A stretch of DNA of 64,000 nucleotides from Isoetes taiwanensis (lineage: Eukaryota > Streptophyta > Lycopodiopsida > Isoetales > Isoetaceae), in assembly GCA_021234155.1 (NCBI GenBank), contig JAJEKV010000011.1, forward strand, positions 1,426,001 through 1,490,000, written 5' to 3'. Position 1 is the first letter of the stretch, and each line of letters opens with the position of its first letter. This document shows positions 17,638 through 63,834 of this stretch, one piece after another. The position numbers were made by a program, and so were the translations under genes. The notes beneath the pieces are model-generated. The model was given only the letters and a program-made list of their open reading frames with translations. It had not been told where the DNA came from and did no database searches.

Positions 17638-20160
17638 CTAGTTTTCTATCCTCTCGGTTATTGCAAAAGGAACCGCCCACCTTGGAGCAAGTTTCTTACA
17701 CTTCCCATTTCGTAGCTTGGCTTGCTTCACTTTAATTTCTAGCCAGATATTATCTTCTATTTGGAATTCTCTTGCTGATCTATGCTTATTTGAAGGACTC
17801 TTTTGCCGACTCCTAGCTGCTAGGAGGTAATTCCTAACATCTTCTACTAACTCTTGGATATCCGTATGAAGCTGCTTGTAGATGTGACGGTCCAGGGGAA
17901 TATACGCCATAAATACGTATATTCCTGGATCCGTCACTATACAAGTCTATCTTCATAGCCTTGTATACCATAGAGTGTGGCACTAGGGGGCATGGCCAAG
18001 TTATTCTCATAACTTAGCCAATCATAGGTTAGACCATTATCCATGTGGCCTTAACCTATTGGGGGCACCCGCCACACAGGACTCACCCGATTGGTGCCAC
18101 GTGGCATCCTAAGTGGACCTAACTTATATAGGCCTAAACCCTAACCCTAGGCCTCTTTCCAGCCCTAGCACCCAGAGACTCACCTACTCGTTCGAAACCC
18201 CGTTTCGAACATCGTTTGTTGTGGCATAGGCTGGTGCAGCAGCCCCAGCAGGGTAGACTCGTTCTTGGAGTAGGAGCAGCATCTTGTGAGTCGAAGACCA
18301 TGGAGGCACACGGATCTGGAGGGAGAGCATCAGGAGCAGGTATCTAGGATAGTAGTTATGATAGCTTATCTGGAATTAGCATTCCAGATATGCTAGTACC
18401 TTGTATCTAGAGTAGAGCCATCCTAGAACCCGTATTCAACATCTTGAACCCTAATCAAGGAACCCTAACCATTAGTTAGATTTGTATGATTAGGTTAAGA
18501 TGTTCTTCTTATGATTATTCTCATGATGTGATGATTATGTGATGATGGTTGATCATGTTTTCTCCTCTTGTATTGGGAAGGGGGGTAGAGACCTAGAGCC
18601 ATATGTAGTATGCTCCTAGAGTAGATCCCTTAGTTCCTATTAGTTGCGGCCTGTGCATAGGAGCCCACCAGGCTATTGAGGCTATGATACGACTCAGCAC
18701 CATACAACGGGGCTAGAGGGAAAGTGGAGGGAGGATCCCTGCCGAGTGGGGGCTTCGGGGGATCCCATAGTGGGCTAGGCTTATGGTCGGTCACTTCGTG
18801 TGTGGGCCGGCATGGGTCCGGCACCTCCGGGGCAATGGTGTCGCCACCTCCTCTCGAGCTGCAAGTGTTGGCTTGGCTCTCGTTTTGGGGGTTAAGTAGG
18901 TGCACGAATGGTGTGTCGCCACGATTCTCTAGTCGCCCCACGAACCTCTAGACCACAGGAAGGGGAGATGCAACCCTTCCCCGCCTCGTCCGGACCGGGG
19001 AGATGCAACTGGAGTAGTCCCGATGGGTGATGCCATGGGATTGCGTGTCAGGAAGGCTAGAGTCCCGTCGAGCCCTGATTTAGCCCATCCGCAAAGTATG
19101 CACTGAGGGGCGGATGGAGTGGTCAACCCTAGCCATTGTTCTATGCCCAGCCCTCGCCATTGCCATGACTTCGGTGCGCTCTATCTTGAGGCCTAGCGGG
19201 TCCGGTCATCCTCCTTACGAGTGCAGCCGGGTAGGAGCTCTCATGTTTCACGGTTTGTGCTTATCATCTTTGTATCGGTATATGTGTGATGCACTACCCT
19301 TCGAGGTAGTATTTGTATATGTTTGATGCTAGTTCTGACGTGTTATCGCTTCCGCTGTTATAGGAGCCCATAGGGGAAGGGCGCGCAAGACACCTTCGTG
19401 TTCCCTCCCCGAACTAGGGATCACCTCGAAGTGCGGGGTAGACGAAGGGCCCGTGCGGTTGTTGAGTCGGACGGGGGATTTCCTGCCGAGTGTACGGCGG
19501 GCGCCGTATGTTTAGCAGGGAGCGTCACAGTAGACTTCTACTTTTGACAGGCGATTGTGCATGTGTCTAGCCTGAGGCATTAATCCATGGGGGTGATCTT
19601 CTGCTTAGCGCCGGGGGCTCTAGCAGGCTCGGGATTTGAAGTTGTTCTATCTCCGTCTGCTGGCACAACTGATATTGCCGAATGTAGTTGGTGATGCCCT
19701 TCCTCATGCCAGACCAAATTTAATTACTTCCTATTTTGAACTAAGTTTTCACGAAACCCACGTGACTGGCTATATTTCAGATACTTCTGCATGCAAAGCT
19801 TATCTTTAAAATATAAAAGTTTTCCTATCTTTTTATACTATTTATAAGTTTCCCTTTACTTATCAATCCTGGCCTCTTTGCAAACACTAGCCCATGCGTC
19901 CTGGTATTCCTTACTTGCGGCTAGTGCTTCTTCAATCTTATTGTCGAACTCGTTAGATAAGGTTGAGATCGCATTACAATGAATTTTCCTTACAAAAAAT
20001 GTATCAAGAGAGTGAGTCCACTACCATCTAGCTTGCCTTTGTAGATTATCTTGACATCCTATTCTGCGAGGAATTCCATTCAACGCATTTGCCTCAGGTT
20101 GACGGGTGATTGCATGAAAATGTATTGGGGGAGGGGGCTTTGATGATCAGTATTTAGCTG
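17638..20160 (-). mobile_element. Decayed Ty3/gypsy pol fragment (element E)
   Basis: On the minus strand, right to left, there are traces of the RNase H end (ITRQPEANALNG, about 20100), a connection region (NEFDNKIEEALAASKEYQD, about 19900), an integrase zinc-finger end (YIRQYQLCQQTEIEQ, about 19680) and the integrase C-terminal region (17877-17638: DVRNYLLAARSRQKS then KLRNGKCKKLAPRW, a typical gypsy C-terminal motif). The catalytic core of integrase is missing between the last two, so a deletion predates the solo LTR inserted at the junction. Several stops and shifts make it non-functional. Confidence 0.85.
17883..19529 (+). mobile_element. Solo LTR, Ty3/gypsy family B
   Basis: The 1647-bp block begins TGTGAC and ends GTCACA. 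It is flanked by a perfect 5-bp target duplication GTAGA (17878-17882 and 19530-19534) and sits inside the gypsy fragment E. No internal region is present, so it is best read as a solo LTR left by LTR-LTR recombination. Its first half matches, in reverse orientation, the LTR at 39778-40863 next to a chromodomain gypsy element. The first ~55 bp can fold into a hairpin. An internal aaccctaaccctagg run near 18140 resembles telomere repeats but is part of the LTR. Confidence 0.92.
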
Positions 20161-21575: not shown

Positions 21576-22485
21576 TTCTTAGTTCTCTATTTGTTTGCAT
21601 CATGCCTAGAGGCTAGGCTGCTAGGACTGCGGCAGTCAAGACTGCGTCTACCAAGGCTGCAGCTATCAGATTAGGAAAGCGCCCAGTGGGTGAGTGTTCT
21701 GGGCTGGAAGATAGCATCTTAGATGCTCTGGAAGGACAGGAGCGTTGACAGGACCAGACACGCGCCCCGGCTTGGGAAAAGGGAATGGAATAGAGGCTTG
21801 CTGCTCATAGGGATGATAAGTTGGACGAGTTGGATGCTAAGATTTATGCTAAGATTTCAGCCTCTTTGAAGCAATGGAGGCAGGATGCTGCTTTGGGAAG
21901 GGGGGTTTGCCTTCTATGGCAGCTCCAATTGCATTGGGCATTAACCGTGGAGCTTGGGGCTCAAATAATCGGTTGTGGCTAGATTCAAATGATAGATTCA
22001 GCTACACCAGATCCATCAGAAGTTGCCGGATGTGGAGAGCTCCTAACTAAGGATGTCCCTCCTATTGCTGCCGATTCATCTCCATTACTCTGGAGATTCA
22101 ATGAACTCGTGAAATTTTCACTCAAGTGGTACATAGGGCTGTTAGATAGTTTCCCGCATGACTCCCTAAAGAAACCTTCCATCCAAGAAACACATTCAAG
22201 GGCATGAAATCTGGATATACTTCCTGAATGGCAGTAATCATTAATGTCAGGATTCTTATCTATCCTTAGGCGGTGAAATCGTTTGCTGCCTAAAGCATGA
22301 ATCAATTTAAAGGTCGTTTGACAGACGTTGTGACCACCAGCTTTGTAAGTAAACTTGTCACCATAATCTGGCCTAATATTGAAGGCTAGGTAGCCCCTTT
22401 GGTCTAGCAGAGTCATTGAACTATAATTATCACGAATCAACCTCAATTCCTTTAGTCCAATCTTAAGCAAGCAGTGTTAGCCCGG

Positions 22486-22865
22486 ACAAATATCCATTCG
22501 AGAAGAATATCAACTTATTGAAAAACAGCAAATAAAACGACATGTCCTAGAAGTACACCCGAGGTGACACAGAAGGTGCACTTTTCCGGATTGAGGCTAA
22601 TTCCAGATTCATCACAGCGTTGAAAAACTAGTTCAAGTTTTACCAAATGGTCCATAACGTGGGTGTAAGTGGAGAAGTCATCCTGAAAGACTTGCAGAAA
22701 GGGATGAACTTGCATGTACTCTTGAAAAACAGCAAGCATAATGCGTTGAAATGTGGATGGTGAGTTTGACAATCCAAAAGGAACGACTTTGTAAGCAAAG
22801 GTACCCCATGGAGTAGTGAAGGTAGTCTTTAGTTGATCTTCTTCTCGAATGGATATTTGATTATG
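22486..22865 (-). mobile_element. Ty3/gypsy RT fragment
   Basis: The minus strand reads NQISIREEDQLKTTF, then TPWGTFAYKVVPFGLSNSPS, the active-site-like FQDDFSTY and SLNPEKCTF, all typical of gypsy reverse transcriptase fingers and palm. Flanks are other sequence, so this is an isolated piece. Its two ends carry the same ~30 bp in inverted orientation (about 22486-22518 and 22832-22865, around atatccattcgagaag), suggesting the fragment was copied or joined by a fold-back event. Confidence 0.8.
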
Positions 22866-23490
22866 GTTTGAGCCCGGACCCCAAACAAGCAGCATTGAAA
22901 ACAATAGTGCTTTGTATGTGTTGCCCTCAAGTGAGCCTCGTCCATAAGTTTCTTTCTTCTTTGCGATGTACAAGCTTTCTTGTAAGTTTCTCTTAAGGTT
23001 TTCACTTGCAGAAGCTTTGAATTCAAACATAGAGTCTTGTGGCTTTGCTAGGTCCTCGTCTCAGAGATCAACATGAGGTGTTTCTTCGTCTGACACGAGA
23101 GCAACAGATGGTGTACTAGTAGATGCTGAGAGGTTTGGTGTGGGCAAGTCTTGGGGGGAGCTGCTTTCCCTCTCTCTGGAAAAAAGTAGTCGAGGTTGGT
23201 GACGTAGTTGACCAGCTCCTGAAGTGTCATAGAATACAGAAGTTGCGTGGCGCTGACTGCTTCCACTTATTGTAGTATCAACTAGTGAAAATGATGGAGT
23301 TGGTGTGATTTGCCTTCGGGGAGGCGGTCTACGCTGGACTATGGGAGACGGACTAAAATGAACTGGACGAGGGAGTTTGAGCTCTATAGGCTGTGGTGGA
23401 GTAAAACGCATTGGTGGGGGCAAACGACGTTCAGGAGCAGGCTGTGGTGGAGTAAACTGAATTGGTGGTGGAAGCCGACATCGTGGTGTA

Positions 23491-24035
23491 GAGGTAATTT
23501 GAGATCTCATTTTGTCCCATTAAGGGATGCTTAAAAAGCCACATCAGCTTTTTAAACTGTCCAATAAGAGAAGAGCTCCAGTGTATTTTATTCCAGTATT
23601 ATGTGGCAGCAGTAATTAATGCAGTTCTAACTAACTTTTGCAGTGTCATTTTTCTACTATAACTTTTGATCAAAAACTCTGATTCGAACACTATTTGTGG
23701 CAATGGATTCGTCTCCTCAAGATCTTTCTAATGACAACCCATTGTTATATCTTTTGGGATGTAAATATATAAGAAAAGAGCAAAAAACCATATTTTTTAA
23801 GGTTAACACATATGGCTTGTATTGAAATACATCATAACCATATATCACTTGAAAGATCTTTTCATTCTGCATCTAATGCAACAAACGCCGCAGCATTTTC
23901 ATGAGTAGATCAAAAGTTATAGGGAAAAAACGACAGCAATGAAGTTGTTAATGCTGCATTAATTGCAGTTTGATGTAGAGTACTCATTCTATTGGAGGAT
24001 TCTTATGGGGACAAAAGGAGATCTCAAATTACCTC
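23491..24035. mobile_element. TA-flanked MITE (Tc1/mariner-like)
   Basis: The 545-bp block has 28-bp terminal inverted repeats with one mismatch (left end gaggtaatttgagatctc, 23491-23518; right arm 24008-24035). It is flanked by TA on both sides (23489-23490 and 24036-24037). The interior is AT-rich with no coding capacity. TA duplication fits the Tc1/mariner superfamily, although the TIR is not the standard Stowaway sequence. It splits the proline-rich repeats of the minus-strand pseudogene. Confidence 0.85.
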
Positions 24036-24230
24036 TAATGTGGTGGTGGGGGTGGTGGAGTAAACTGAACTGGGCTGGGGCTTTGAATATTGGAGGCAGA
24101 AGTTTCGTGGCTACTACCTGGGGACATTTAAGGAGGTGTGAAAACCATCGGAGGAGGAAGCCTGCGAGCAAGAGATGGAGGCGCTGCAGCTCTTTTCTCT
24201 CCAGCCATACTCAACAAGTAGCGTTAGACG

Positions 24231-24324
24231 GTATAAATTTATACGACACAGAAGCAGGAACGGTAGACGGTATAAATTTATACAGAGAAGGGCAACGTTG
24301 AACGCAAATGGTATAAATTTATAC
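24231..24324. promoter_or_regulatory. GTATAAATTTATAC palindromes, cluster 1
   Basis: Three perfect copies of the 14-bp palindrome lie at 24231-24244, 24270-24283 and 24311-24324. They are immediately upstream of the minus-strand ATG at 24208. Two are preceded by tagacg. The spacing of 39-41 bp is close to four helical turns. Role unknown; possibilities are binding or methylation sites. Confidence 0.8.
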
Positions 24325-25005
24325 AAAAACTCGCAGATATTCGTATAGGAGACTTTATGGAGAACCGCTATACGGAAAGGCACTGAGCAGAGGTACTTAA
24401 GCCCGGCGCCGGTCGATCTATTTTCTATATATGTTGTTCGGAGTCGAAGCCGCTCGCGTTGCGCCTTATATACCCCCCCCCTCCCTAAATTTGCTCTCCT
24501 GAACAGCTATAAGCGATTCCATACGGTCATGGCCACGTAAGTCTCTAATCAGTACTATTCTAGTTCCGCATCTCTTTTAATCTGTTGAGTCCAGTGTTGT
24601 TTACGTACGCGTATGGTATGAGTTAAAGTACTTACGTACCGTGCCGGGACGTACAATACGTACTTAAGCATTTTGTGCAAACAATGATTAAAATTTTTTT
24701 TTTATCTGTTGTTTAACGTACGCGTACGATACATACTTTTTGGTGCGATGCGTACTTTATAGGTCGATACCCCGATTTTATGATTTTTCACAAAAAGGTT
24801 AAAGTGCGTATCGTGCGTATTTTATGGTATCGTCACGTCGCACTGCGGCGTATTTTGAACAACAACATTTTAACGTGCTTTCGTGCGTTAAATCGGTGAC
24901 GTCGTTACGCTACGTCCCGTCTTTGTCAGACGTTAACGTCGCGTTCCATACACGCGTCGAATGCGGTAAATCTGTTACTACACTGGTTGAGTCTAAGGTC
25001 CTTCT
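24325..25005. other. CGTAC-rich divergent intergenic region
   Basis: No gene. A pyrimidine-rich tract lies near 24470-24490. From about 24600 to 24960 the sequence is unusually rich in CG dinucleotides and the words CGTAC, TACGTA and CGTACGCGTA (24603 and 24717 both have acgtacgcgta), in an otherwise AT-rich, CG-poor neighbourhood. It separates the two palindrome clusters. Confidence 0.6.
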
Positions 25006-25412
25006 GTATAAATTTATACTGAGAGGGTTCTGCAATGGTATAAATTTATACCGCTCATGCTCAGACAGTGTAAATTTATACCGTTGAAGAACACTTGCGG
25101 TATAAATTTATATGCTCCGCCGTTGCAGAACCCTTTTGGTATAAATTTATACCACAAGTGTTAGATACCGTCTGCAGAACACTTGTGGTATAAATTTATA
25201 CCAAAGGGTTACGCAGCGATATAAATTTATACCGTCGAGCCGATGCGTATAAATTTATCACCGAGTAAATACGCAACGATATAAATTTATCCGCGTCGAA
25301 AGCACGACAGATAAATTTATACCGATAGATCCTCTCGGTATAAATTTATACAGAAGAAGACCAAAGTCGTTAAAACAAACAGTTCGTAAACACTTTTGGT
25401 ATAAATTTATAC
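25006..25412. promoter_or_regulatory. GTATAAATTTATAC palindromes, cluster 2
   Basis: Twelve copies or close variants start at 25006, 25038, 25068, 25100, 25139, 25188, 25219, 25247, 25279, 25309, 25338 and 25399. Six are perfect 14-mers, several extended to GGTATAAATTTATACC. Typical spacing is 28-32 bp. Copies 25139 and 25188 lie in a larger inverted repeat (about 25132-25163 against 25177-25208, sharing ggtataaatttataccacaa). The cluster ends about 210 bp before the ATG of the methyltransferase gene. Confidence 0.85.
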
Positions 25413-27057
25413 GAGGGGATAACCTCCAAGGTTTATATTTAAATAGGGTGTGGAGTGGCTAAGAAAGGTCCAAAACCATACTAGTTAAATAATAGTGTTG
25501 TGTTTTAAGGTCAATTGACACAGAAAAAGAGGTAAAACAGCACGAATTTGAGGATCTTTAAGCCACTTTTTTAATAGCTAAAGTGTTTAAAATAGTTTAA
25601 AAAACTGTTTTTCTAATGTGAAAATGGTTTTTTTTTTGCGCCGTTTCAGCCACAAGATTATTATCAAACATAAAGGACAACCATCACAGCCACCAGCGCC
25701 AAAGATACAAACGTATGAACTGAAAGATCAAACATGGTACGTACACAGGGGAGCGAGAGAGCGCTACCCCACTGAGGCGTACCTCTATTTCGGCGAAATG
25801 ACAAGCCTTACGACCACAGAAAACAAAGATGAGCTACTTATGAACTGCATAAATGACAAATGGGACGTTGTTTACATTCTGAACACTAGAATGCTTTGTA
25901 TAAGCATGTGCAAACCAAAAGACGTCCACGATTATATTGCCAAAAATTACAAGAATGGCTATGTAAGTTGGTCTTCGTTACTTTACCTTATATATTTATA
26001 CCGTCAGCTTTCTAATTTACCCTGCATTACAGGACATAGTTGACATTCTGTCCTCAGTAACACTATGTGATGAAAAAGTTATGACCAAAGGCCTTTGGTA
26101 CCCGCGTCTTAAGGAAGATGTGGAGAAGGAAGAGGAAGAGGAGGAACAAGAAGAGGAAGAGGTGGTGACAAGAGGGAAGGGCAAGAGGCAAGCACTGGTA
26201 GACACACAGCCAAAAACAAAAAAGTCAAAAACCACAAAGGCCTTGACCATAGAGGAGCCAACAGAAGCGCTTCAAAAGGCTCCTGGAGCAGATATTGTTT
26301 TGCAGCCCTCAGACAAGTCAAGTGCTATTTTAAAGAGGGTTAATGAGACCAAACTCCTTAAGCAAACTATTTCTTTGATGCTGAGCACGATTAAGAGGCC
26401 ACCAAAAAATGAAGATGGGGTCAGAGTGCTTCGGGTAAGAAAGTTGTACGCGGCACATGTGGCTATCCTCAAGCAAAGAATGAGAAGGAATCCACATGCA
26501 CATGTGTCGCCACTGGTTCTGATGGTTGACAGAAGTCAGGTCAACCAACTAAAAGATTACAGAAAGGCCGACTTCGAAGATTATACCTATTATGTTCTTG
26601 GCAGCACACATAGTTACAAAGCAAGGAAAGAACTATCAAAAGAAGAAAGCCGAAACGAAGTCACTGGAAGAGCGTAGAAGCGTATATCTATGTGGGGGTA
26701 ATAGACGAAGAGGCAAAAGTCATTGCTGTGAGCTGAGACATAATCTCGACAATGACTTCAGATTAAAAATGAGCCTCATAGACAAAATCCGTTTCATGCA
26801 CTGAGAATATGTAGAGTTCAAACAAGTGCATGGAAAAGACTTCAAAAAACAAAAGAACAAGCTCCAAGAACTTCGAGAAGCCTGTGTGATAGAGTGCTGC
26901 CTTAGTTATGATTCGGATAAGAAGCCCATAATGGCTGTGAAGCAGTACGACAACTACTTCCAACTTGCTTTCAAAGATGGTCAAGTAAGTAAAACTTTTA
27001 ATTTAGTCTTTTAGTAGTATGTTTAGTGTGGTTTGAAGTGTGTATTAGCCTTGAGCT

Positions 27058-27135
27058 GTATAACTTTATACCAACCATGGAAGCCCGCACCATGTTAAAA
27101 TTGAAACAGGTCCAGGGCACGGTATAAATTTATAT
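27058..27135. promoter_or_regulatory. Palindrome copies inside an intron
   Basis: A variant (gtataactttatac, 27058-27071) and a near-perfect copy (gtataaatttatat, 27122-27135) lie in the intron between exons 2 and 3 of the methyltransferase gene. They flank ccaaccatgg, which has an inverse ccatggttgg at 27176-27185, so the intron also holds a larger imperfect fold. Confidence 0.7.
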
Positions 27136-28237
27136 CGTGCCTTGGCACGGTGCGCATTTAGACAGTGGAACCCTTCCATGGTTGGTTTAATTTTTTACTG
27201 TGTAATAAACTCTGGTACGCTATTCAACACTAAACTCCTTGACTTCGACCATTAACAGGTGTGGGATCTTCAAGAAAGAATTTTCTGCATGTTCGAGGAT
27301 GGTGAGCTTAAAGAACAAGCTAGCTCCGCAGGAAAAAAACCAAAAAATTGAAGCAAAACAAAAACATATGAGCATTGTACCCTGGACGCAGCTACAGGGT
27401 CTAAAAAGCAAAGAAATTTTTGTGCGACTCTTAGAGAAAGTTGTGGCCAAGGAATGTACTCTAGATGAAATGGATAAGGAAGCTAAGACATAAGACTTAT
27501 TTTGTATGTCGTGTTCTTCTTTCCCTTACTTTGTCTTACAACCTTTTTCCTCGTGCAGTCAGAAAGACATTGTCACCTGCCAATCCGATTTAATGAAGCA
27601 ACTAAACCTAGAAGACTGGGAGGAGTGCAAGTTCTTTACCCAATTTGTACCACAGATAGTATAATCAGAGAGCACGCAGTTAACTTCAGTGGATGGGTAA
27701 GTTTTGCAGAAAATATATTTTGTCTTCGTGCCTTTGTCTCACTGTTCTCTTACAGAACAAGAAGAAAGGGCTACCAGCAAGCTTTTTGAACCTGGTTCGT
27801 AGGGCCAAAGAGAAAAGGCAGAGACTAAAGGCCATTGAACAGGAAAAATCAGTCGGCTCCAGCAGTTTTGACACTAGCTATGAGAGATTTACAACTTTTG
27901 GCCAGGACTGCTTGTACAGGGTTGTTCAGGGTGATTGCACCAGGCTGGAGACTCTTTTGGACAAGCAAAATTTTACATTGTGCATAGCAGATATTCCTTA
28001 TGGCTTCAAAATTAAAGATAGCGCCTTCGACGATGAGGCTTTCACGCACGTGCAAGTCCGTGCTTTTTTGGACGGCCTAAAGGAATTCACGCTATCTGCA
28101 AACTGGAGGGTATTTTCATTCTGACCTGCAGACGATGTTCGTGCTTAAACCTATGGGAGCGGTCTGTAACGTCGGCTTTGAAAACTATATTTGGTAAGCT
28201 TTACATTTGTTGCTTTTCTTTTTACTGTAACTCCATG

Positions 28238-28395
28238 GTATAAATTTATACCACAGTTGCCTTAAGGTTTAAATTTATACGGCTGGAGCAAGCGTGATAT
28301 AAATTTATACCGCATGGCAACCTTCGTATAAATTTATACGGCATGGCACCTGGTATAAATTTATACAACAAGGCAACCGTGGTATAAATTTATAC
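28238..28395. promoter_or_regulatory. GTATAAATTTATAC palindromes in last intron
   Basis: Six copies or variants start at 28238, 28267, 28297, 28326, 28353 and 28382, with spacing of 27-30 bp, all within the intron 28194-28456. Four are perfect 14-mers. Spacers share catggca or aaggca words, so the array looks like it grew by unit duplication. Confidence 0.85.
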
Positions 28396-29138
28396 CGCCA
28401 TACCACTGGGCTAACTTATTTTCATTGTTTTCTTTCTACTAATTTTTAATTGCCAGGCTAAAGACGAACCTCAAGGGACATGGTGGTGGTCCGCGCTTAG
28501 TCAGCTGTTTTGAGCATTTCCATATAGGTTATTACAGCACAGACACCAAAAAAACCATGGCTCATTTCAATACCCAGAATGAGAAAACTCCTCCCTGCAA
28601 TGCTTTTCAGATCCCGGCTACTTTGCCAAAGTTAAAAGACCCATAGAGACAAGGCGCCGTGGTGTCCCATTATCAGAAGCCACAACGGCTTATTAATAAT
28701 TTAATACAGTGGTTTTCTCGCCCAGGCGACTGGATTTTAGATGCATTTTCTGGAACATGCACCACATCAATTTGCGCTCTTAAGCAGGGGCGCAATGTTG
28801 TCTCCGTTGATATAGATCCAGAGAAAATAAGTTTCATCAGGATCAGGATAAGCTTCTGTGAATCCTTTCCTGATGAAAATGAGGAACTGGGAGCAAAGAA
28901 TGGTGCTGGCGATGTTAAAGTCACTTACACAGAAATCCAGCCTCCAATTACAGGGAGAAAAGATGAGGAGGTGGAGTTTGTGGGCCTCGAGCCTGTGGAG
29001 CCTGTGCCCGAGAAACCGCCTGTACCAGTAGCATTGGAATTAGAAGCAGGCGTCTCTGCTGTTGTGGCCTCGCAAGAGACAGATCCTAAGGGGGACGAGA
29101 GTCCTGTGGACTGGGAAGATCCACCACCTCCCGTATGA

Positions 29139-30795
29139 TATTATACAGAGAGATTGAAATGTCTTGTTATCATTTTTTTATCGTATAAGTGCCTCTAGTT
29201 TCATTGTAAACTATGTACTAAAAATTGTAATATATATTTATGAAAATTTTTAAACTGAAAGCTTTGTGTCTTCAACAATGCTTAATTAGAACAACTCTTT
29301 CTTGCTCCATGATTTCACACTCTTTGTCTTTTATATGTTTGATTTTAGTAGTGCTTACATTAAGCGTGCAAAAAGACAAACTATATTTCCTTCTATTTTC
29401 AACAGTACGAACTTATTGAGTTTTCGAAACTAATGTTTCTCTCCTTAAAACAAGCATTTTTTTTTGCCCTCTTTTTAAAATGAAAAAGCTTCAAAAATGT
29501 TACTCTTTTGGGAGTATTCCAAACGCTAAATGCTCAACAATCTATTTTCTCCCTATTTTGTCTGTTTTTTTTCAAGTTTCCAATTTTTGTAAAGGAATCT
29601 TTCAAACACACTTCTTAAATAAGTGCGTTTCATTTAAACCTTGTTTTACGCAGACTTTCAATCTTGACCTTAGAAAACCTACCAACTGCACTAAATTTGA
29701 GATATCTTCAACATGATGCTAAATCAAGTTTAAGCCTTGGTATAGTTTGCTGTGAGCTTTTGGAATGTCAAAAGGAGCGACATTTTCACAAAGCTATAAG
29801 AAATGATATCTTAAAAAAGCTCAAAGATGGAAACAAATTCCATGCGAAAACAAAGCTATAAGAATTGATATGTTCAGAAAGCTCAAAGATGGAAGGAAAT
29901 ACCCTGCGAAATTGTCCAGACTGAGACTTATTTGTAAAATGACCTCTGAAACTCATTTCCATCACAAAGTATGGTGAAGCAAATGAAATACAGGACTCCA
30001 GTTCTAGATCCTAGCTCTGCTCTCAGTATTGCTATGTTCTAGACTTCACAACAATAGGGTCTAATGGCCTTTATGAGCTCATGCATTCAACTATATCTAT
30101 CTATGATAACTTTGTATAACTGCATGCCTGAATGAACATATCTATCTGCGGACTTTTGATGCATTTGGTTCATCTATCTGCTCAGTTAAAACAGTCTATC
30201 ATCAGGATTGGTACAACTGATAGGCATATAATCCTATAAAGTGAAGAACAAAATTCTTTTGGTAGAAACAGACACTGAAATAAGTTACTCAGATTGGCAT
30301 ATAAGCATACCACCATGTCATGGTTTCATGCATACATACCAAAATATTAAAGCTCCATCGAATTGGGCACTCAAGCCTCTAGTCCAGTATGTTTCAGTGG
30401 CATGTATGTGTGAAGCGAAAAGCGAAAGGAAAGGCCTGCAGCAAACAAATAGCCCCCTAGATTGAAGAAGATGGATACTGCAGTTAGGATCTAATTTATA
30501 GCATCAAAATTGATAAATGTATATATCATATTGCATTTTGAAAATGGTCTGTTGCAAAATATCATGGACCCCTATACACTCAATAAGAAGCCTCTAGTGG
30601 TGCAGAGCATAAAGGTTTTAAAAGAACACTCCTTTAGTATGATGGAAGAACCGATCCTCAATATGATGAACCTCGTAGCAAGAAATCAATGGCACTGGCG
30701 GGGATGCTGTAAACGCCTTGCCAAAATCACAGTAAACAACCCATACCGGGTCTCTTGCCATATGCAAGACCTCCACGGAGCCTTTGAACAGAAGC
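29139..30795. other. No gene recognised; 62-bp tandem repeat
   Basis: Two copies of a 62-bp unit (29788-29849 and 29850-29911) begin acaaagctataagaa. The remaining sequence has only short frames without recognisable domains. Confidence 0.55.
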
Positions 30796-31354: not shown

Positions 31355-33155
31355 GCTCCACATGACGTGGCAGTGACGAAGGATAAGCCAAAGTGAAGAG
31401 GCTGGCATGCTGTAACAAATACTGAATAAGGCTCAAGCGAGTGACAGGATCCACAGAGGTGAGCAAAAAAAAAATATTTGTATTTTCCATATGCCCAAAG
31501 ATTCATGCCGAAAACCCCAGGTCAGGAACCACATTGAAAATTCTTTCTTGATTTTTGACTTAAAGAAGAACAAAACAATAGATATACCTGACATGAATGA
31601 TGACAGTACTTGTAATTGACCAGAAGAGCTTGATCTCTTGCCTAATATCGGCTGCAATCACCATAAACTAACTTCAAAAACTCCCCTTCTTCACCGCCTC
31701 ACCGTCTGCAACAAAAACTCCTCGTCTTCATCGCCTCACCGACTTTGCAGAAAGCGAAAATTAAGCCTGACCTTCTTCCCCCCCCCAAACAAAGTTGACT
31801 TTGGAACGAAGACTTTGTTTATGCAATCACATGCCGGAAAGAATCGGTTCTCATTCATCTTAGCAGATTTTCTACAATGGTGGATAGTGGGTAGCCGCGC
31901 ACATGCGAACTACCCACGAAAAATAAAGGGAAAATCCAATTATAACATTTGGACCGCTAACAGATGTTCGGCTGGTGTACCTGTCAAAAGCTTATCACCG
32001 GGATTAAAAAACCCCGCCCTTTCGGGTTTTCGGGGAAAAACCCTAGTGATAAACCTTCGGCAAGGGGCTTAGACAAACGCAAGGCAGAGAAATCGCTCCC
32101 AAAACCCACGAATGAAACAGATGCCGCTCGCGAACCTGTACCTGCACATCACCAACAAAAACAACAAGACAAAAACAAACCTCCCAAAGTGGAGGGGCTG
32201 ATTACGCGCGTGCCACGCGACAAATATAATAAACAAAGAAGGGGGGGGTGGGTTCAAAGAGAAAGAGGTACTGCTGAGAGAGAAGAGGAAGCGCCGATGA
32301 GGAGTTGATGCAGAAACGCGCCTAAAATAGCGAACTCCCAACCAGAATGGACATGCGCTGCCCGCATGCATGCAAAACATGCATGCTCGTCCCATTCTAG
32401 AATGACGATCCGATGTCTCGGATCGATGGGATCACATGCCGGAAAGAATCGGCATCAGCAGTAGGCTTAGAGCACCACAAAATGTGGCTCTCATGCTGCG
32501 CCCATGATGCCAAAAATTGGAGATGGATAATTTGATAGCCCCCTAATTGAATTTTGTGGTAAGGGCCAAGGGCCAATTTTTGGAACACCGAGAAAATTTT
32601 CCGCTGGCAAAATCCCCCCACAACCTTAGCAAACTAACTTAAAAAAAAAATCCAAAAAGTTTTCCTCTAGATTGGAAAAACCAAATTTAAACAATAGATT
32701 TGTTGTATAAAACTTCGTTTCGGGTTCATGTCTGCTCGATATAGTCCCACTCTGATGTCTGGCTGTCTCTTTATGCATTGTCTCAACAATCTCACCCTAA
32801 ATTTAGTCTGTGTTCCTTGTAGTTTGTTATTGTCCACTTCGTTCCATAGGTCACATCCCATGCCTAACCCCCATTTCTGTGTTTCTGACATCCATCCACC
32901 TTCATTATTTCTTGCTATCTCTTTTGATTCCTCTATTGCTCATGCGACCAACTTGAGTCTTGATTGGTAAGTTGCATTCCTGGTTAGACATGATATTATT
33001 CTTTCCAACCCCAGGATCTCGAATTGATCTTCACATTTATCAAATTGAGGTGTACTCAGTTTGTTATATGTTTTAGTATCAAAGATGGCAGTACAAAATG
33101 TTTTAACAAATTTGTTATGGTATGAAACAATGCAGCGAAATTAGCAAGAGAATTC
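31355..33155. other. No gene recognised; 22-bp direct repeat
   Basis: The phrase atcacatgccggaaagaatcgg occurs near 31826 and again near 32431. A short GC hairpin-like patch lies near 32000 (ccccgccctttcgggttttcgggg). Frames on both strands are not convincing genes. Confidence 0.45.
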
Positions 33156-35159: not shown

Positions 35160-36943
35160 CTAAGCAATCAATGATAAGTTGAGAGAATCTAGGAGAATCT
35201 TTATAGGATCTTAGAGAATCCAGAGGAATCTCATGAGAATCTATGGGAATCTCAAGAGAGCATCTTTGAGAATGTTAAGGGAATGTAAGGGAATCTTGAT
35301 AAAATCTATAAGATCCTGGAGGAAACTTGAAGGAATCTTGGGGTCTAGGGGAATCTTCATAGAATCTATGGGAACTAGAGGAATCTAGGGGAATATATTC
35401 CTAAAATCTTTGAGAATTTAAAGTAATCTTGATGGAATCTTGGAGAATCTAGAAGAATCTAGGAGAATCTTCATAGGATATGTTGGAGAATCTAGAGGAA
35501 TCTTGGGGTATCTTAATAAAATCTAGGGGATGTAGAATCTTAAGAAACTAGGGAATCTTTGTAGAACTTTAAGAATTTTAGAGAATCTTTAGGAATCTAG
35601 GAGAAATTAAGCGAATCTTGAGAGAATCTAGGAGAAATTAAGAGAATCTTGAGAGAATCTAGGGGAATCTTGATGGAATCTTAGAGAATGTAAAAGAATC
35701 TTCATAGATTCTCTTAGAGAACCTAGAGGAATCATGGGATAATCTTTGGGAATCTAGGGGAATCTTAGGGAGTCTTAAGAGAATCTATGGAAATTGTCAT
35801 AAACTCTTTAAGAATCTATGGGAATTTAGATAGAATCTTGGAGAATCTAAGGGAATCTTAATAAAATCTAGGGGAATCTCCATATAATCTTAAGAATCTA
35901 GGGGAATCTTTGTAGAATCTTAAGGAATCTAAGGGGAAATCTAAGGGTATCTACAAGAATCTTGGTGCAATTTTGGAAAATGTAGGGGATTCTTCATAGG
36001 ATCTTAGAGAATCTACATGGATCTCAAGAGAATCTTAGGGATTCTATCGAAGTCTTTATAGAATCTTGGGAAATCTAAGAGAATCTACATGGTCCAATAG
36101 AGAATCTTTGAGAATGTAATGGAATCTAGGGGATCTTCCTAATATTTCTAAGAATCTAATGGAATCTTAGAGAATCTAAGAGAATCTTCATAGAATCTTA
36201 GGGAATGTAGAAGAATCTTCATAGAATCTTGGGGAACCTAGAGGAATCATGCGATAATCTTTGGGAATCTTAAAGAATCTTAAGAGAATCTATGGAAATA
36301 TAGGAGAATCTAAGGGAATTTAGATAGAATCATGGAGAATCTAAGGGAATCTTAATAAAATCTAGGGTTAGTCTAAGGGAATCTCAAGAGAATCTATAGT
36401 AATCTCAAGTATTTCTTTGAAAATCTACAGGAATCTTCCTAAAATCTTTGAGAATTAAGAACAATCTTGATGGAATCTTGAAGAATCTCGAAGAATCTAG
36501 GAGAAACTTCATAGAATCTTGGAGAATCTAGAGGAATCCTGGGGTGTTCTTTTGGAATCTAGTTAACTCTTTGGAGAATCTTCGAGAATCTCAAAAGAAT
36601 CTTTGGGAATCTAGGAATATCTACATGAATCTTCATAAAACCTTTAAGAATCTATGCTAATCTAGAAGAAATCTTGGGTCACTAGGGAAATCGTAGTAAA
36701 ATCTAGGGGAATCTAAGGGAATCTCAAGGAATCCAAGGGAATCTAGGGGAATCTAGGGGAATCTCAAGGAATCTAGGGGAGTCTAAGGAAATCTTTCTAA
36801 AATCTTTGAGAATCTTGATGGAATCTTAGAGAATCTAAGAGAATCTAAGAGAATCTTCATAAATTCTTGGAAAATCTAAGAGAATCGTCATAAAATCTCT
36901 ATGAATCTATGGCAATTTAGATGGAATCTTAGAGAATCTGAGG
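35160..36943. repeat. Degenerate GAATCT array, 10-11 bp period
   Basis: For about 1.8 kb the word GAATCT (also GATCT, AATCC) recurs every 10-11 bp, for example gaatctagga-gaatcttt. It is strongly purine-biased on the plus strand with no stable longer unit. Many units read GAATCTTC. No gene overlaps. The period is close to one DNA helical turn. Confidence 0.9.
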
Positions 36944-38924
36944 GAAAAATGACGTCCTCACCACTAAATTTGTTTAAAGGGCCTCTTTAACTGAACCTTA
37001 TGAATAGTGCAGTAGTTCATTTACTGATTATTGTAGCTCGATACTATTTGGTCTTAATTTGTGTAAAGAGGTTGTCTAATTCTATTTGGTCTTAGTAAGC
37101 TAAGTCAGGGATGATGGTTTAGGACAAATAACGTACTCACCACCCTAACATTGCTTTGTTGTGTGACTGTTGGGTCCTGCCTAATATCATTCATGGTACA
37201 ACCGCTCATAATGCAACTACTCATAGTACAAAAACTTGTATATATATATATTTTTTTTTGTTCTTTACTCTTAGACATGCCATGTCATAGAATAGATGGA
37301 TGTTATATGAACAATTAAAAGCAAACTTCAAAAAAAAAAACAATTAAAAGCAAACTTGGTTCACATCTGCTCATAACTGGATTGCAATTTCCAAGTTTTG
37401 ACACTAATGGCTATGGCAGATAGCTCCTTGCGCTCTATTCGCTTTTTCATGCATCTCCCTTTGCCCCTCGTAGTGACTTTTTTTTCTGCTCCTTGCGCGG
37501 AAGCAAAAGTTCGTGGCGATATGTATTGCGGTGCAGTGAGAAAATATGATCTAGAGGGCGATGCTTCTTGGCGCTGACGTCTGTGGCTAGGGCGGACAGG
37601 AGAGAGAGACCGCCCCTTTCTTGAAGAAATTTTCCAGGTTTCTTGTAAATTTTCTTCTTGGAAGCAGCTTTGATGTGGTTCTTTCCAGGTTTTCTTTGTG
37701 CCACTAACGTGGCTCTGTTGCTCTTTGCTTCTTATGAAAGCATTCTTGCTTCTTATAAAAGCATAATGTGCTCTGCTTCTTGTTAAGAGGACATTTCAGC
37801 AGTCCAATCTTTTATTGCAGAGGCATATCCAAAAGGCAAAATGGCACCTATAAGGTGGAGTAGATTAAGGGCAGGCTTGGTAAGAGAGAAGCAGCTTCTA
37901 ATTTGACATCACACTTTTATTTCACCTGGGTTTATTCTGTCAGGCAGTCATTTCCTTCTCATTTTCTTTCTTTCTAGCATAGACAAAGGTACAGATTTTT
38001 CAAGAATTGATCCGAAATTTTCTTTTTAAATCAGAAGGTCCATTGTGAAGAGTAAGGAGTAAGATCTGAATGCTTGAATCAAAATCCCTAAGCATCCTAG
38101 TGCTATCTCAAGCATTTTGTGCTTGAATAGCCACTCCAGTATTGACGCTTGGGTAGATTTTGGTACTGATAAGCCAAAATCTAGGTAGCTGTTATAAGTA
38201 CTAATAAGCTTAGAATATGTTCACTCGAATACTGCTAGGGTTGCTTAGATTTTTATGCCTTTCTGACACAGTTGTACAGAATTTTGGAGCTCAGCATCGA
38301 GCAAGACCATGTAACTTCTATCACATCTCATTATTTCTGGATTCTTTGCTTTAGTTCATCAAATTTGAAAAAAAATATTTTGGGAGCTTTTCATCCTAGC
38401 ATCTTCTTGTCTACTCTGATTACCATATGGGAGACTTCTTCGTGCTTCATGTTTATCAGCTTATAGAGCAGGCAATAAGTTCCAGCTCATAGAGGACGAA
38501 AATGTCAAGACTACTCCTGTAGTAGTCCTTTATATTTTTTAAACATTGCACTTATTTTGATATAATATAAAAATTTCTTACCTTAAAAAAAAGGGTTCGT
38601 GGCCGTATCTTGCTCCCCTAGAAGCCCAATGCCAGCATCAATGACAATCTAAACTCTGAATCTGCTCACTATGGCTTATTTTCCTTCTACAAAAGTTATG
38701 GCACAAACTGGACCTCTTGTGCAGCCTTGTGATATGCCCCTAGGGGGCAAATGTTGCCCTGCAAGAGGATGATGACATTCAGCTAAACCAAGTTTTGATG
38801 GCTAATATAATTGTTAACATGGTCCTTCATTTGTAATTAATATAATTGTTTTTTGTATCTCTCTAGTTGCAAAATATACAGATCTGTTTGAAAAATGCTG
38901 GACACTAAAGTTTAGGATCAATTT
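36944..38924. other. No firm gene; one basic open frame
   Basis: A minus-strand frame at 37704-37447 starts MAQRKPGKNHIKAASKKK and is very basic. I recognise no family and see no splice context. Nothing else is supported in this interval. Confidence 0.4.
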
Positions 38925-45542: not shown

Positions 45543-45585
45543 TCTTGGAGGCTCCTACCGAGATCCACCCTGGTTCTTGGGAACT

Positions 45586-60037: not shown

Positions 60038-60054
60038 GAACAAGATTGCAAATT

Positions 60055-60082
60055 AAACGGGAGTGTTGCAGCACTCCCGTTT
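60055..60082. repeat. Hairpin aaacgggagtg...cactcccgttt
   Basis: An 11-bp perfect stem with a 6-base loop, located inside the left terminal repeat of the candidate TIR element. Confidence 0.85.
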
Positions 60083-60536
60083 CAAAGATTCCCTTTAAAA
60101 AACATCATGCTCTAAAAATTGGCCTTTTTTGATAAACTTAAAAATTTCAGAGGGTTCATTGTTTTTTTTCCCCTCATTTTGGCCCCTCATTAAGTGACAA
60201 GTTTATTTTTTGCAAAGAAATACCCTTGAAAATGGCAAAATGTAGGCATGAATACGTAATCTCTAAAAGTGAGATATCAAAAACATCAAAATAGAGAAGA
60301 AAAAATAATTATTATTTCTTTAAAAATTTTCAATACATTAATTTGGCATCCTCAAAATTTGGTGCATATTGAACAATATGCTTGTCAGACGTTGCAACTG
60401 GGTATCTGTCCCAAGTCTCCACGTTTAGTTGTTCCATCAAACAGTTTTGACATGTTATGACGATCTATCGGCTGAATGAAAAACAAGAAAATAATCAAGT
60501 AAACAAATGAACACTAGGGCATGTAAAACGAAAAGC

Positions 60537-60675
60537 GTATTCTGGAATACACTTATGCTTTTCTAAAAAACAAACATGTATTCCAGAATACACTTTGGAT
60601 TTTCAGAGAAAGCAAAAGTGTATTCCGGAATACACTTTTAATTTCCTAGGAAAGCAAATGTGTATTCTGGAATAC
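60537..60675. repeat. GTATTCCGGAATAC palindromes, left cluster
   Basis: Copies or variants lie at 60537, 60578, 60620 and 60662 (gtattctggaatac, gtattccagaatac, gtattccggaatac), with spacing of 41-42 bp, that is four helical turns. A decayed fifth copy is near 60707. Each is followed by acttt or acctt, and spacers carry aaagca. Confidence 0.85.
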
Positions 60676-61245
60676 ACCTTTGCTTTCTAAGAAATCAAAT
60701 ATATATTCTAGAACAACATGTTGCCTGTGTTAAGGTGCTGGAAGACGCTTGTGATAATAACCAAACACATTAAAGAGGATCTTATTTACAACTAAAATTG
60801 ATAATAATAATAAATAACAATGTAAGAGGTACTTGGCCAAAATAAGATTCATTATTAGCAACACTCCCTTAGGGTGCTTGGCGTGTAACTTCTTCAGTTT
60901 GACTAGACATAGAACAAGAATCATTTTGGTCCACTTTTGAAACTTTTTCTTTTACAAATATTTCATTGCATTCGATTTGGTCTATTTTATGCACTCTCTC
61001 TTTTACAGAGACTGGATGAATCGAGTCCTCAGTTTTAACTCTTTTCTCTGCAGAATAGATGAGTTATCGTAAACATCTTTATTAAGGCATTGAAAGAGTA
61101 GTTCGCATAACACCTACATTTATTAACCCAAAGATAACCCAATTTAGAGGCAAAAACCAAGGAAACGCCATGCATGCCTTCATATTGGAATTGGCATTTT
61201 GCCATCTTCAAGCTTGTGCTTATCTTGGTTTCTGCGTGTAACACT

Positions 61246-61328
61246 TCAGATCCTAATGATGGTTGTCCATATGTTCAGATCCTAATGATGGTTGTCCATA
61301 TGCTCAGATCCTAATGATGGTTGTGCAA
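61246..61328. repeat. 29-bp tandem repeat, three copies
   Basis: Units starting at 61246, 61275 and 61304 read tcagatcctaatgatggttg plus tccatatg. Nearly identical. Confidence 0.92.
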
Positions 61329-61525
61329 CGCATCTGCAGCCTGCTTGAAAGATGCATCCAATTCCTTTTTATCAAAACTCATAACTTGGAAAAACTCTTG
61401 TTCTTGAATGATCCTTGCCGTAGGCCATGGGAAGCCACTGCAGGTGCTGCAAAAATATTTGTACAATATATTAAATTATCATTCATAAACAAGATACATG
61501 TATTGAAGGTAAGAACTTGTACTCT

Positions 61526-61557
61526 TTCTATTCTATTCTATTCTATTCTATTCTATT
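61526..61557. repeat. (TTCTA)n microsatellite
   Basis: About six copies of TTCTA, the same unit as at 38925-38961. Confidence 0.95.
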
Positions 61558-62502
61558 AGACAAAGTCTTCGACTTCATCTTCAACATTTTTTCAAAGAAG
61601 TTAGGTATTTCTTTCTGCAAATTCATATCCTCCTCAACATGTGAATGTGCTAAACATAAGAAATGATGGAGAGTTATAAATAGCTTCAAATAGGCAGACA
61701 AACGATTTTGAACAATTGGATGAATGATGTTGCAACATAAAACCTTAATGGTCATTCAAAATTTACTGCAGCAAATTGATGATGTAGAGACAGGCTATGC
61801 TCAACCTTCAGATATTGGCACCGGGTTTGGACTAAAAATTTAAGCCACAAAAGCATTTTTATCATGTGCTTCTTGTGGAAAAAACATGCCCATTTATTGC
61901 CTACGATGAGGCAATGCTAAACAAAACTTGAAGAACTCAGAAAATCGTATGATACTTTAGCAGAAATAGCCACAACTTGTTGGCGTTACACAAACAGATG
62001 CATAGACATGGATGTCAAAAGGCTGGTTGCCTCTTCAATGCAGAGAATCACATGTAAAGCAACCAGGTCTGAAGATGGATAACAGTCAAGTAACAGATCA
62101 AAGCATTTGGAACTCATACTAAGAAATAACAGTTAATGTTCGTCCTAAAAGAGAAGATAGACTTACTCATTTGAATTGAACAAAGGCTTTGGTCAAGATT
62201 GGCAGTTCCTCCCTACGCCTCCAGCTAGAAATCAGTACTGAATTGCGACTCCAAGCTTCTTCTGCTACCAAGCAGTTGCTAAGAGGAGGAACGAGAAGGT
62301 CGAATCACAAATCCTTAACTGCAAAAACCTTCCACTGAATCCTTAATAAATCCATCCACAGATCCGTCCAGAGGTCCGTCATCACCAGCCTAATCTAAGA
62401 AACCCTAATCTAAGGGCCGCCATCACCAGCCTAAGTAGATCGCTGGATTGCGCCAGAGGAGGCGGAAAAAAAATTCGCCCCCTCTCCCGTCTGAACTAAA
62501 AA

Positions 62503-63459
62503 CCTATTCTGGAATACAAAATGTATTCCAGAATACATTTTCCACTTTATTTTAGCACCTTGATCCAGTATCCCTGCGTTTTTCTTGTATCCTTCATAAT
62601 GCTTATTACATTTTCCACTTTATTTTAGCACCGTGATCCAGTATCCCTCTATTTTTCTTGTATCCTTCATAATGTTTATTAACAAGTATCCTCGATTCTT
62701 CTTGTTGCATCACCAAAGGTCTGCGAAAATTACCTAGCAAATTATCTGCTTCGAAGTCGCCAGATGCTCCAACATAGGTTTGCAAGTTGCCAGATGCTTC
62801 AACACAGGCCGAAATCGAACTTTCGGCAGCGAACTTTAGGCAAAAACCCTAAACTGCACAAACGAACTTTGAAGGCCAGCGCCATGGCTCAGCCTATAGC
62901 CAACACCAATGCCAAAGCCATCGCCACTTCGAAATGGTAGCCCGAGGTTTGCAAGGGAAGATCGCCTTAGCGAAAGCAGAAAACAAAAATACCAAAACGT
63001 ATTCCGGTATACAAAGTGTATTCCGGAATACATTTCCCTCTTATGATCTGGAACCAAAATCCAGTACCCCTGAACTTAAAAACAAAAATATCAAAATCGC
63101 TTTATTATTTAAAAAAACCATGACCCTGTATCCACACAAAATAAATAAAAAAAAAATGAAAGGTCATCAAAATAAATTGAAAATGCCTAAAAATCTAGTT
63201 GTTGTTGGTTTGTTTTTCCACATAAAAAAATCGCAAGGTTCTATTGAAAATGCCGAAAACCCGAAAAACCTGGAAAATTTCAAGATCACTGTTGAGTCTC
63301 AAAAACTTGTATAGCAAATGTGTATTCCGGAATACACTTTGGATTCGAGCCAAAACAAAATTGTATTCTGGAATACACTTTGACTTTTAAGAAAAGCAAA
63401 AGTGTATTCCGGAATACACTTCTGTTATCCTCGAATAGCAAAAGTGTATTCCAGAATAT
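62503..63459. repeat. GTATTCCGGAATAC palindromes, right clusters
   Basis: Copies or variants lie at about 62504, 62523, 62999, 63018, 63322, 63363, 63404 and 63446. Spacing is 19 bp within the first two pairs and 41-42 bp in the last four. Perfect 14-mers occur at 63018, 63322 and 63404. A 73-bp tandem duplication (62536-62608 and 62609-62680) lies between the first two pairs. Confidence 0.85.
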
Positions 63460-63834
63460 AATTTTGGTACTTTAAAAAATTACATCATTAAAAAATGACT
63501 CATTATAACCTAAAAGCACCTTTTCTGAAATACAATCCAAGCTAACAAAATGTTGTGTATGACGTACACTTAGATTAGTGGTTTTTCCAAAAAACACACT
63601 CCAGGTAAATTCTAACTGTTAGGAAAAGTGTCACTTTGACATAGTCAATCTTCTCTTTGCACAAAAAAATGAGTGATTTTGGGGGGGTCAAAATGCAATT
63701 TTATGACCAAAATAAATTCTTTTGCCTCATTTTAGCTCTTTTTTTGAAAAAAAAGGGAAATCTTTGAGGAATATTCCTTTTGCTCTCGTTTCAATGATTT
63801 GCTCCCGTTTAATATGCAACCTTGTTCTTGGCCA

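What the first reader, a model, noticed from the sequence alone, without database searches (positions are those of the whole stretch)
24231..28395. About 23 copies of a 14-bp palindrome GTATAAATTTATAC around and inside the methyltransferase gene
Seen: perfect or near-perfect copies at 24231-24324, 25006-25412, 27058-27135 and 28238-28395, with none that I found elsewhere in the window. Spacing within clusters is mostly 27-41 bp. Copies lie in the divergent intergenic region and in two introns, never in exons. Inference: binding or modification sites for the product of the adjacent gene, or transposase sites of a mobile element. Conservation of the core while spacers diverge suggests selection or gene conversion.
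Basis: seen in the sequence. Interest (0 to 1): 0.9.

Follow-up and report, generated by a model that had tools for sequence, protein, structure and literature searches.

The report
Palindrome arrays marking a methyltransferase transposon
The repeated 14-letter palindrome is a tag carried in the non-coding parts of a plant jumping gene that also carries its own DNA-methylating enzyme; a related jumping gene with a related enzyme carries a different palindrome, as expected if each enzyme recognises its own family of elements.

Summary
In detail: 23 copies of GTATAAATTTATAC (up to 2 mismatches) in four clusters, plus one decayed copy, none elsewhere in the window (0.43 expected). The gene is a decayed copy of a multi-copy two-gene DNA transposon: an N4/N6 DNA methyltransferase (PF01555) divergent from a DUF7869-type gene that I read as its transposase, with AACAAGG... 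inverted ends and, in two small copies with both ends, 4-bp target duplications. The assembly holds 12,556 exact copies; the reversed sequence, 17. In 29 loci of other copies, 568 cores lie in promoter and introns, 0 in exons (240.8 expected if uniform). The single intron-2 core is 95% identical between copies, the rest of that intron 72%. A related family carries another palindrome, GTATTCCGGAATAC (3,720 copies), in methyltransferase introns (2 loci read); exact copies of the two motifs never adjoin (0; same-motif pairs 4,971). Promoter/intron-1 DNA with arrays is CpG-rich. Best reading: each palindrome is the site by which the element's own protein finds and marks or protects its own family, like VANC/VANDAL but with a DNA methyltransferase. 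Binding, methylation and anti-silencing are inferred, not shown.

The parts
24231..24324 (.). Array A: 3 exact cores in the 320-bp interval between the two divergent start codons
25006..25412 (.). Array B: 12 cores in methyltransferase intron 1
25988..26001 (.). Decayed single core in intron 2 (a core with at most 2 mismatches stands here in 24 of 26 other loci counted)
27058..27198 (.). Array C: 2 cores plus a third with 3 mismatches in intron 3; the stretch is one large imperfect inverted repeat
28238..28395 (.). Array D: 6 cores in intron 6
24529..29138 (+). Methyltransferase gene, broken copy; exon limits approximate: 24529-24536, 25652-25963, 26033-26985, 27261-27491, 27559-27696, 27757-28192, 28455-29138; motif ADIPYG in exon 6, PF01555 in exon 7
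21988..24208 (-). Divergent gene (start codon near 24208), read as the N-terminal part of the transposase; broken and truncated; the paralogous copy on contig C13 is followed downstream by a DUF7869 domain
24149..25337 (.). CpG-rich island (highest-scoring CpG segment of the window) spanning the shared promoter and most of array B
29621..29645 (-). Methyltransferase-side inverted end of the element (reads AACAAGGTTTAAATGAAACGCACTT inwards)
23489..24037 (.). Insertion with 36-nt inverted ends inside the divergent gene
22487..22859 (.). Insertion with 29-nt inverted ends carrying a reverse-transcriptase fragment, inside the divergent gene
60039..63826 (.). Second, related element (inverted end AACAAGATTGCAAATTAAACGGGAG, 4-bp target duplication CTTG) with 12 copies (up to 2 mismatches) of a different palindrome, GTATTCCGGAATAC; no methyltransferase or transposase match in it

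Best explanation
The palindrome arrays are conserved cis-acting sites of a DNA transposon family that carries, head to head, a transposase gene and an N4/N6-type DNA methyltransferase gene. The most likely working: the methyltransferase (perhaps through the region upstream of its catalytic domain, which to my eye resembles ParB-type modules) recognises the palindrome as a dimer; many sites at about three-turn spacing (28-32 bp) in the shared promoter and introns give high local occupancy; the bound protein marks the DNA (6mA or 4mC) and/or keeps host CpG methylation away from the promoter, so that copies of that family, also gene-poor ones, can be expressed and mobilised. Related families diverge by changing protein and palindrome together. 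Shown: a multi-copy element with inverted ends and target duplications, arrays confined to non-coding DNA, constraint on the core, covariation of motif with methyltransferase family (two families), CpG-rich promoter/intron 1. Inferred: which protein binds, what mark is made, and its effect on silencing.
For: Genome-wide 12,556 sites, control 17; 4,971 exact same-motif pairs 5-35 bp apart, 0 for the reversed pattern. 568 distinct cores in 29 loci (28 copies) of the best methyltransferase matches, 0 in exon-matching bases, 240.8 expected if uniform (which corrects 575 and 242.9 for two overlapping loci). Intron-2 core 95.2% pairwise identity, 71.6% in 46 other intron columns, 77-79% in adjoining exon ends, 27 copies. 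Two gene-poor elements with both ends and target duplications (2.2 and 3.4 kb) keep 10 and 9 cores; 1 and 0 cores lie in the rest of their 20-kb stretches. Family-2 methyltransferase (44-62% identical by exon piece; 2 loci read) carries GTATTCCGGAATAC-type cores in introns and none of motif 1; 30 family-1 loci, window included, have 583 hits of motif 1 (576 distinct) and 0 of motif 2. Mixed exact pairs 0. A second transposase-like ORF (51% identical over 121 columns) has 5 motif-2 copies within about 600 bp upstream. CpG o/e in the 600 bp before exon 2: median 1.46, exon 3: 0.41, 27 loci. Published precedents: ParB-like/methyltransferase gene opposite the transposase of a Sola1 element (PMC12477816, passages); VANC motif arrays in introns and upstream regions, differing between related TEs (PMC5735166, sections 7-9).
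Against: No binding or methylation data. ParB likeness not confirmed: no Pfam ParB hit, both structure models of low confidence (mean pLDDT 31.9 and 39.3). The motif covaries with the transposase family too, so the transposase could be the binder; only 2 family-2 methyltransferase loci were read. The mixed-pair count used exact motifs, while many motif-2 cores have a changed centre. High CpG could reflect an ordinary promoter island; the exon comparison is confounded by codon constraint; 0-core copies may have lost the 5' region through unrelated changes; in the window the introns with arrays C and D are only weakly CpG-rich (o/e 0.70 and 0.91), and two other segments of the window without arrays (18743-19524, 31695-32451) also exceed the shuffled controls. 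The loci were chosen as best protein matches from a capped first look and share ancestry, so counts are not independent events.
Confidence: 0.55

Rival explanations
1. Transposase binding sites: the DUF7869-type transposase binds the palindromes for assembly of the transposition complex or for autoregulation of the bidirectional promoter, as subterminal repeats do in other DNA transposons.
For: Gene-poor copies with both ends keep arrays; motif covaries with transposase-like as well as methyltransferase family; the second window element has arrays towards both ends.
Against: In family 1 the arrays lie inside methyltransferase introns, up to several kilobases from the end, and in the C13 copy none lies in the roughly 4.4 kb from the start of the transposase gene to its end; a lone core in a 69-bp intron is odd for a synapsis site.
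Confidence: 0.22
2. Host or general transcription-factor sites: TATAAATTTATA is a two-way TATA-like box; the arrays drive or tune transcription, with no role for element-coded proteins.
For: Sequence itself; one array lies in the shared promoter.
Against: Family 2 uses GTATTCCGGAATAC, not TATA-like; co-change with element family; many sites deep in introns.
Confidence: 0.1
3. Structure-driven repeats: palindromes and inverted spacers grow by template switching and fold into hairpins that feed small RNAs or merely persist; the core has no sequence-specific partner.
For: In the window copy, spacers fold with each other beyond the cores in arrays B, C and D (z -7.6, -7.6, -2.8; array A none, z +0.9); array sizes vary between copies.
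Against: The lone intron-2 core is conserved without any array; 0 of 568 cores in exons; sharp motif with variable spacers.
Confidence: 0.08
4. Sites for another element- or host-coded protein that was not identified, for example an adaptor that recruits the methyltransferase.
For: Methyltransferase domains need not carry the specificity; no DNA-binding domain was recognised with confidence.
Against: No third gene was recognised in the copies read; weak evidence, since no complete two-gene copy with both ends was read.
Confidence: 0.05

Closest known systems
VANC/VANDAL anti-silencing system of Arabidopsis (PMC5735166: outline, abstract, sections 7-9; PMC10398659: abstract, passages)
   Same: Short motif in arrays in introns, intergenic and upstream non-coding DNA of a DNA transposon; array size changes fast; related TE families have different motifs; the motif is specific to the family.
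   Different: The accessory gene here is an N4/N6 methyltransferase, with no VANC-type domain reported; the motif YAGTATTAY there is not palindromic, here it is a perfect palindrome. Hypomethylation was shown there, only suggested here by CpG content.
Sola1-1_Ec32 of Ectocarpus with a ParB-like/DNA methyltransferase gene on the strand opposite the transposase (PMC12477816, passages)
   Same: [quoted passage not shown] its authors already propose that such proteins bind and modify their own transposon.
   Different: The passages read there mention no recognition motif; here candidate sites are identified, with constraint, distribution and co-change. Homology of the two transposases was not tested.
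Subterminal repeats of CACTA, Ac/Ds and related transposons (listing seen; details recalled)
   Same: Clustered short repeats bound by an element protein.
   Different: Those sit next to the ends (recalled); in family 1 these sit mainly in internal introns and a shared promoter, and target duplications are 4 bp.
parS/ParB of bacteria (recalled; ParB-fold survey PMC12704722, passages)
   Same: Palindromic sites for a ParB-type protein; ParB-type folds fused to N6_N4 methyltransferases occur in phages.
   Different: ParB fold not confirmed here; dense arrays in introns of a eukaryotic transposon.

Membership tests
VANC-type sequence-specific anti-silencing system | Short motif arrays confined to non-coding parts of the element | tested here: met
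   0 of 568 cores in exon-matching bases in 29 loci
VANC-type sequence-specific anti-silencing system | Related element families have different motifs | tested here: met
   Two families, two palindromes, no mixed exact pairs
VANC-type sequence-specific anti-silencing system | Accessory protein of the VANC family | tested here: not met
   The accessory gene is a PF01555 methyltransferase; no VANC-type domain (DUF1985, DUF287) was reported for the pieces scanned. So it is not a member; it may work like one
VANC-type sequence-specific anti-silencing system | Loss of 5mC at bound arrays | tested here: inconclusive
   Only indirect: high CpG o/e, low TpG/CpA; no methylation data
Sola superfamily | 4-bp target-site duplications (recalled criterion) | tested here: met
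   AAAT, TTGA, CTTG: 3 of 3 elements with both ends read
Sola superfamily | Transposase homologous to Sola transposases | not tested
   No Sola sequence was at hand; the transposase piece matches Pfam DUF7869
Beta-class N4/N6 DNA methyltransferases | PF01555 domain and catalytic DPPY-like motif | tested here: met
   PF01555 E 3.3e-12; ADIPYG read in exon 6; profile matches MboIIA and CcrM
ParB-like/methyltransferase fusion | ParB/sulfiredoxin-type fold before the methyltransferase domain | tested here: inconclusive
   No ParB hit in Pfam; models of low confidence; likeness rests on recall

The most novel reading that the evidence does not exclude
A eukaryotic DNA transposon that marks itself: its own N4/N6 DNA methyltransferase recognises a family-specific palindrome planted in its promoter and introns and lays a bacterial-type mark (6mA or 4mC) there that keeps host 5mC silencing off. 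Families split by changing enzyme and palindrome together, like modification enzymes without a restriction partner, giving self/non-self recognition among transposons of one genome.
Probability: 0.3. Interest if true: 0.9.

Novelty: new variant of a known kind. Interest (0 to 1): 0.78.

Why it matters
Methyltransferases have been found in eukaryotic transposons, and it has been proposed that they mark their own element, but in what I read no target site was named. Here are thousands of candidate sites, with signs of constraint, and a second family acting as a natural specificity swap. That makes the proposal testable (binding and long-read methylation at named sites), would offer a second route to sequence-specific anti-silencing beside VANC, and gives enzymes with 14-18 bp candidate targets that could become DNA-addressing tools. 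It also bears on whether 6mA/4mC in plants is partly transposon-made.

Tried and rejected
Rejected: (1) feature private to one gene - 12,556 sites genome-wide. (2) Recent tandem duplication of one unit - spacers diverged (364 distinct of 430), flanks carry little information, and the intron-2 core is single. Related spacers do exist within arrays, so expansion by duplication/inversion is part of their history. (3) Array-wide gene conversion as the cause of core conservation - does not reach the lone intron-2 core. (4) Chance AT-rich palindrome - control counts. (5) Phage or virus origin - no DNA match in phages, no methyltransferase relative in viral contigs (only two peptide patterns from poorly conserved parts were used, so weak); phage tblastn matches that were listed (20 of 45 records) cover only the methyltransferase domain. 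The 16-base form GGTATAAATTTATACC turned up in 34 stretches of viral contigs, one site each, which I take as background and did not follow. (6) Rfam (gathering threshold) and tRNA scans: nothing.

Led nowhere: protein search with the divergent gene piece found nothing; structure predictions of P0001/P0002 and of exon 3 were too poor to use, so no fold search was made; phage search with the putative ParB region gave only E 3 or worse; Pfam scan of 18 members of alignment A3 gave no ParB, only weak hits such as DUF6551 in 4 of 18, best E 0.017; inverted ends pairing the two flanks of the window copy were not found, its transposase side being truncated; a composition-matched palindrome control (GTATTTAAATATAC) did not complete. 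The search for relatives of P0001 scored only the 7,997 candidates sharing most words. Slips: the label 'intron3' lumps introns 3 and 6 (one search gives the split), and L054 and L081 are overlapping stretches of one copy, so 7 cores were counted twice there and (recount).
Full report
Observation. GTATAAATTTATAC occurs 24 times at up to 2 mismatches in the window, all within 24231-28395, where shuffles give 0.43. Thirteen are exact. Gene models from splice signals and reading frames put the clusters in the 320 bp between two divergent start codons (array A), methyltransferase intron 1 (B), intron 3 (C) and intron 6 (D). No core overlaps an exon. Core changes in this copy sit at the edges: 12 of 13 mismatches in the 23 cores fall in the outer three bases of either side. 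Flanks carry little information beyond the two bases next to the core.

The genes. Exon 7 matches PF01555 (E 3.3e-12); the profile with two relatives matches MboIIA and CcrM over its C-terminal part. In a search of 5.8 billion proteins the read-through query found one relative, Riccia sorocarpa R1sor_003872, and that one, with candidates capped at 7,997, found a second Riccia protein. The window copy is broken by stops and frameshifts. The divergent minus-strand gene starts with MAGEKRAAAPPS (read by eye), is interrupted by two insertions with inverted ends, one carrying a reverse-transcriptase fragment, and breaks off near 21988. On contig C13 the paralogous copy is followed, in broken frames, by a domain matching DUF7869 at E 1.4e-25, so I read it as a transposase; the step from DUF7869 to transposase is recall plus its place inside the element.

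A transposon family. The window lies in an assembly of 1.66 Gb (unnamed; the size recalls Isoetes taiwanensis, an unchecked recollection). The motif occurs 12,556 times, its reversed control 17 times, and two exact cores lie 5-35 bp apart 4,971 times, 0 for the reversed pattern. Of eight array loci fetched by place, five (C4, C13, C2, C7, C9) carry methyltransferase exon matches and two of these (C4, C13) also the divergent gene; C8, C5 and C1 carry neither, but each has at least one of the element's ends. The methyltransferase query gave 170 matches, with 49 of 6,167 candidates scored. Homology downstream of the gene stops at one place in several copies, giving an inverted end AACAAGGTTTAAAATGAAACGCACTT; in the window it ends at 29645. 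Two elements with both ends have 4-bp target duplications, AAAT and TTGA, contain 10 and 9 cores, and 1 and 0 cores lie in the rest of their 20-kb stretches. Four-bp duplications are what I recall for Sola.

Constraint. The 30 best methyltransferase matches fetched include the window itself (L072); the other 29 loci come from 28 copies, since L054 and L081 overlap. They hold 568 distinct cores, none in exon-matching bases, 240.8 expected if uniform (one search had 575 and 242.9 before the overlap was removed). Array size varies: promoter cluster 2-6 and intron 1 6-18 where the two can be separated, intron 3 1-10, intron 6 0-6 (some loci end there), while intron 2 has one core in 24 of 26 loci counted. 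Aligned over 27 copies, the intron-2 core has 95.2% pairwise identity, the other 46 intron columns 71.6%, adjoining exon ends 77-79%; one diverged copy (L075) lacks it and one (L052) has lost part. Over 573 cores the consensus widens to CGGTATAAATTTATACCG, and spacing peaks at 28-32 bp (doubled cores included). In the window copy, spacers fold with each other beyond the cores in arrays B, C and D but not A.

A second family with another palindrome. A related element at 60039-63826 (target duplication CTTG) has 12 copies (up to 2 mismatches) of GTATTCCGGAATAC and none of motif 1. Genome-wide that motif occurs 3,720 times, its control 0. Locus L082 holds a methyltransferase 44-62% identical to family 1 by exon piece, with 8 motif-2 cores in its introns. 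L086, fetched because its exon 3 is 90% identical to that of L082, has 7 motif-2-type cores, five at exactly 42 bp, the central CG changed to CA or TG in all 7. These 2 loci have 0 motif-1 cores; the 30 family-1 loci have 583 motif-1 hits (576 distinct) and 0 motif-2 hits. An exact motif-1 core within 5-35 bp of an exact motif-2 core: 0 in the genome. On C4 five motif-2 copies lie within about 600 bp upstream of a second transposase-like ORF, 51% identical over 121 columns to the divergent gene. So palindrome, methyltransferase and transposase change together; this does not tell which protein reads the palindrome.

CpG. The promoter and intron 1 form the strongest CpG segment of the window (24149-25337; o/e about 1.4-2.2 in its parts, tile median 0.48), with TpG/CpA depleted. 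Just after array B the o/e falls to 0.53; the introns with arrays C and D reach only 0.70 and 0.91, and two other segments without arrays also stand out, more weakly. In 27 loci the 600 bp before exon 2 have median o/e 1.46, exon 3 0.41. With cores and 20 bp on either side masked (1 kb examined) the median is still 1.05 in copies with 8 or more cores (range 0.57-1.35), and 0.36, 0.48, 0.50 and 0.80 in the four copies with one or none; Spearman 0.69. This fits long-term absence of 5mC near arrays, but promoter islands, codon constraint and loss of the 5' region in the 0-core copies are confounders.

Mechanism and neighbours in the literature. VANC21 binds a 9-bp motif in introns, intergenic and terminal non-coding parts of VANDAL21 and reduces methylation; related VANDALs have other motifs, and arrays expand and contract (PMC5735166, abstract and sections 7-9; PMC10398659, abstract and passages). 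In Ectocarpus a Sola1 element carries a ParB-like/methyltransferase gene opposite its transposase, and the authors suggest that such proteins may bind and modify their own element (PMC12477816, passages). ParB-type folds fused to N6_N4 methyltransferases are known from phages (PMC12704722, passages). The present arrays are what such a protein would need. I did not confirm the ParB fold. My searches (listings, open-access PMC only) showed me no report of palindrome arrays for methyltransferase transposons; the two works that PMC12477816 cites for green and red algae were not read.

Verdict. Shown: a multi-copy two-gene DNA transposon family with constrained palindrome arrays in its non-coding DNA, and a related family with a different palindrome. 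Inferred: recognition by the methyltransferase, self-marking, anti-silencing. Main open rival: transposase binding.

Noticed in passing
60039-63826: Second element with inverted end AACAAGATTGCAAATTAAACGGGAG, target duplication CTTG and arrays of GTATTCCGGAATAC; used as comparator. A stretch on contig C2 (L084, L085) is 90-93% identical to it in its longest matches.
   Followed up: yes
11462-15050 (minus strand): Fragmented ORFs that look like another DNA-transposon transposase (SDG and HGKGEHDGAGAV motifs, recalled likeness); no confident Pfam hit for the pieces scanned.
   Followed up: partly
45472-50980: Gypsy-type retrotransposon with gag, reverse transcriptase, RNase H and integrase domains.
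   Followed up: partly
35163-36946: Degenerate AT-rich array of AGAATCTA-type units, period about 10/21/31 bp.
   Followed up: no
L086:864-1045: Five motif-2 cores at exactly 42-bp spacing whose central CpG has become CA or TG in each, as by deamination of methylated C.
   Followed up: partly
24537-25000: Intron-1 stretch before array B with CpG o/e 2.16 and many CGTAC/ACGCGTAC words; may hold a second motif.
   Followed up: partly
L040:4112-6565 (contig C4): Second, related transposase-like gene with motif-2 copies upstream, about 1.2 kb beyond the family-1 divergent gene match and in the same direction.
   Followed up: partly
L050:853-1470 (minus strand): Another DUF7869 match (E 4.9e-11) about 2.2 kb outside the end of the C7 element.
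   Followed up: no
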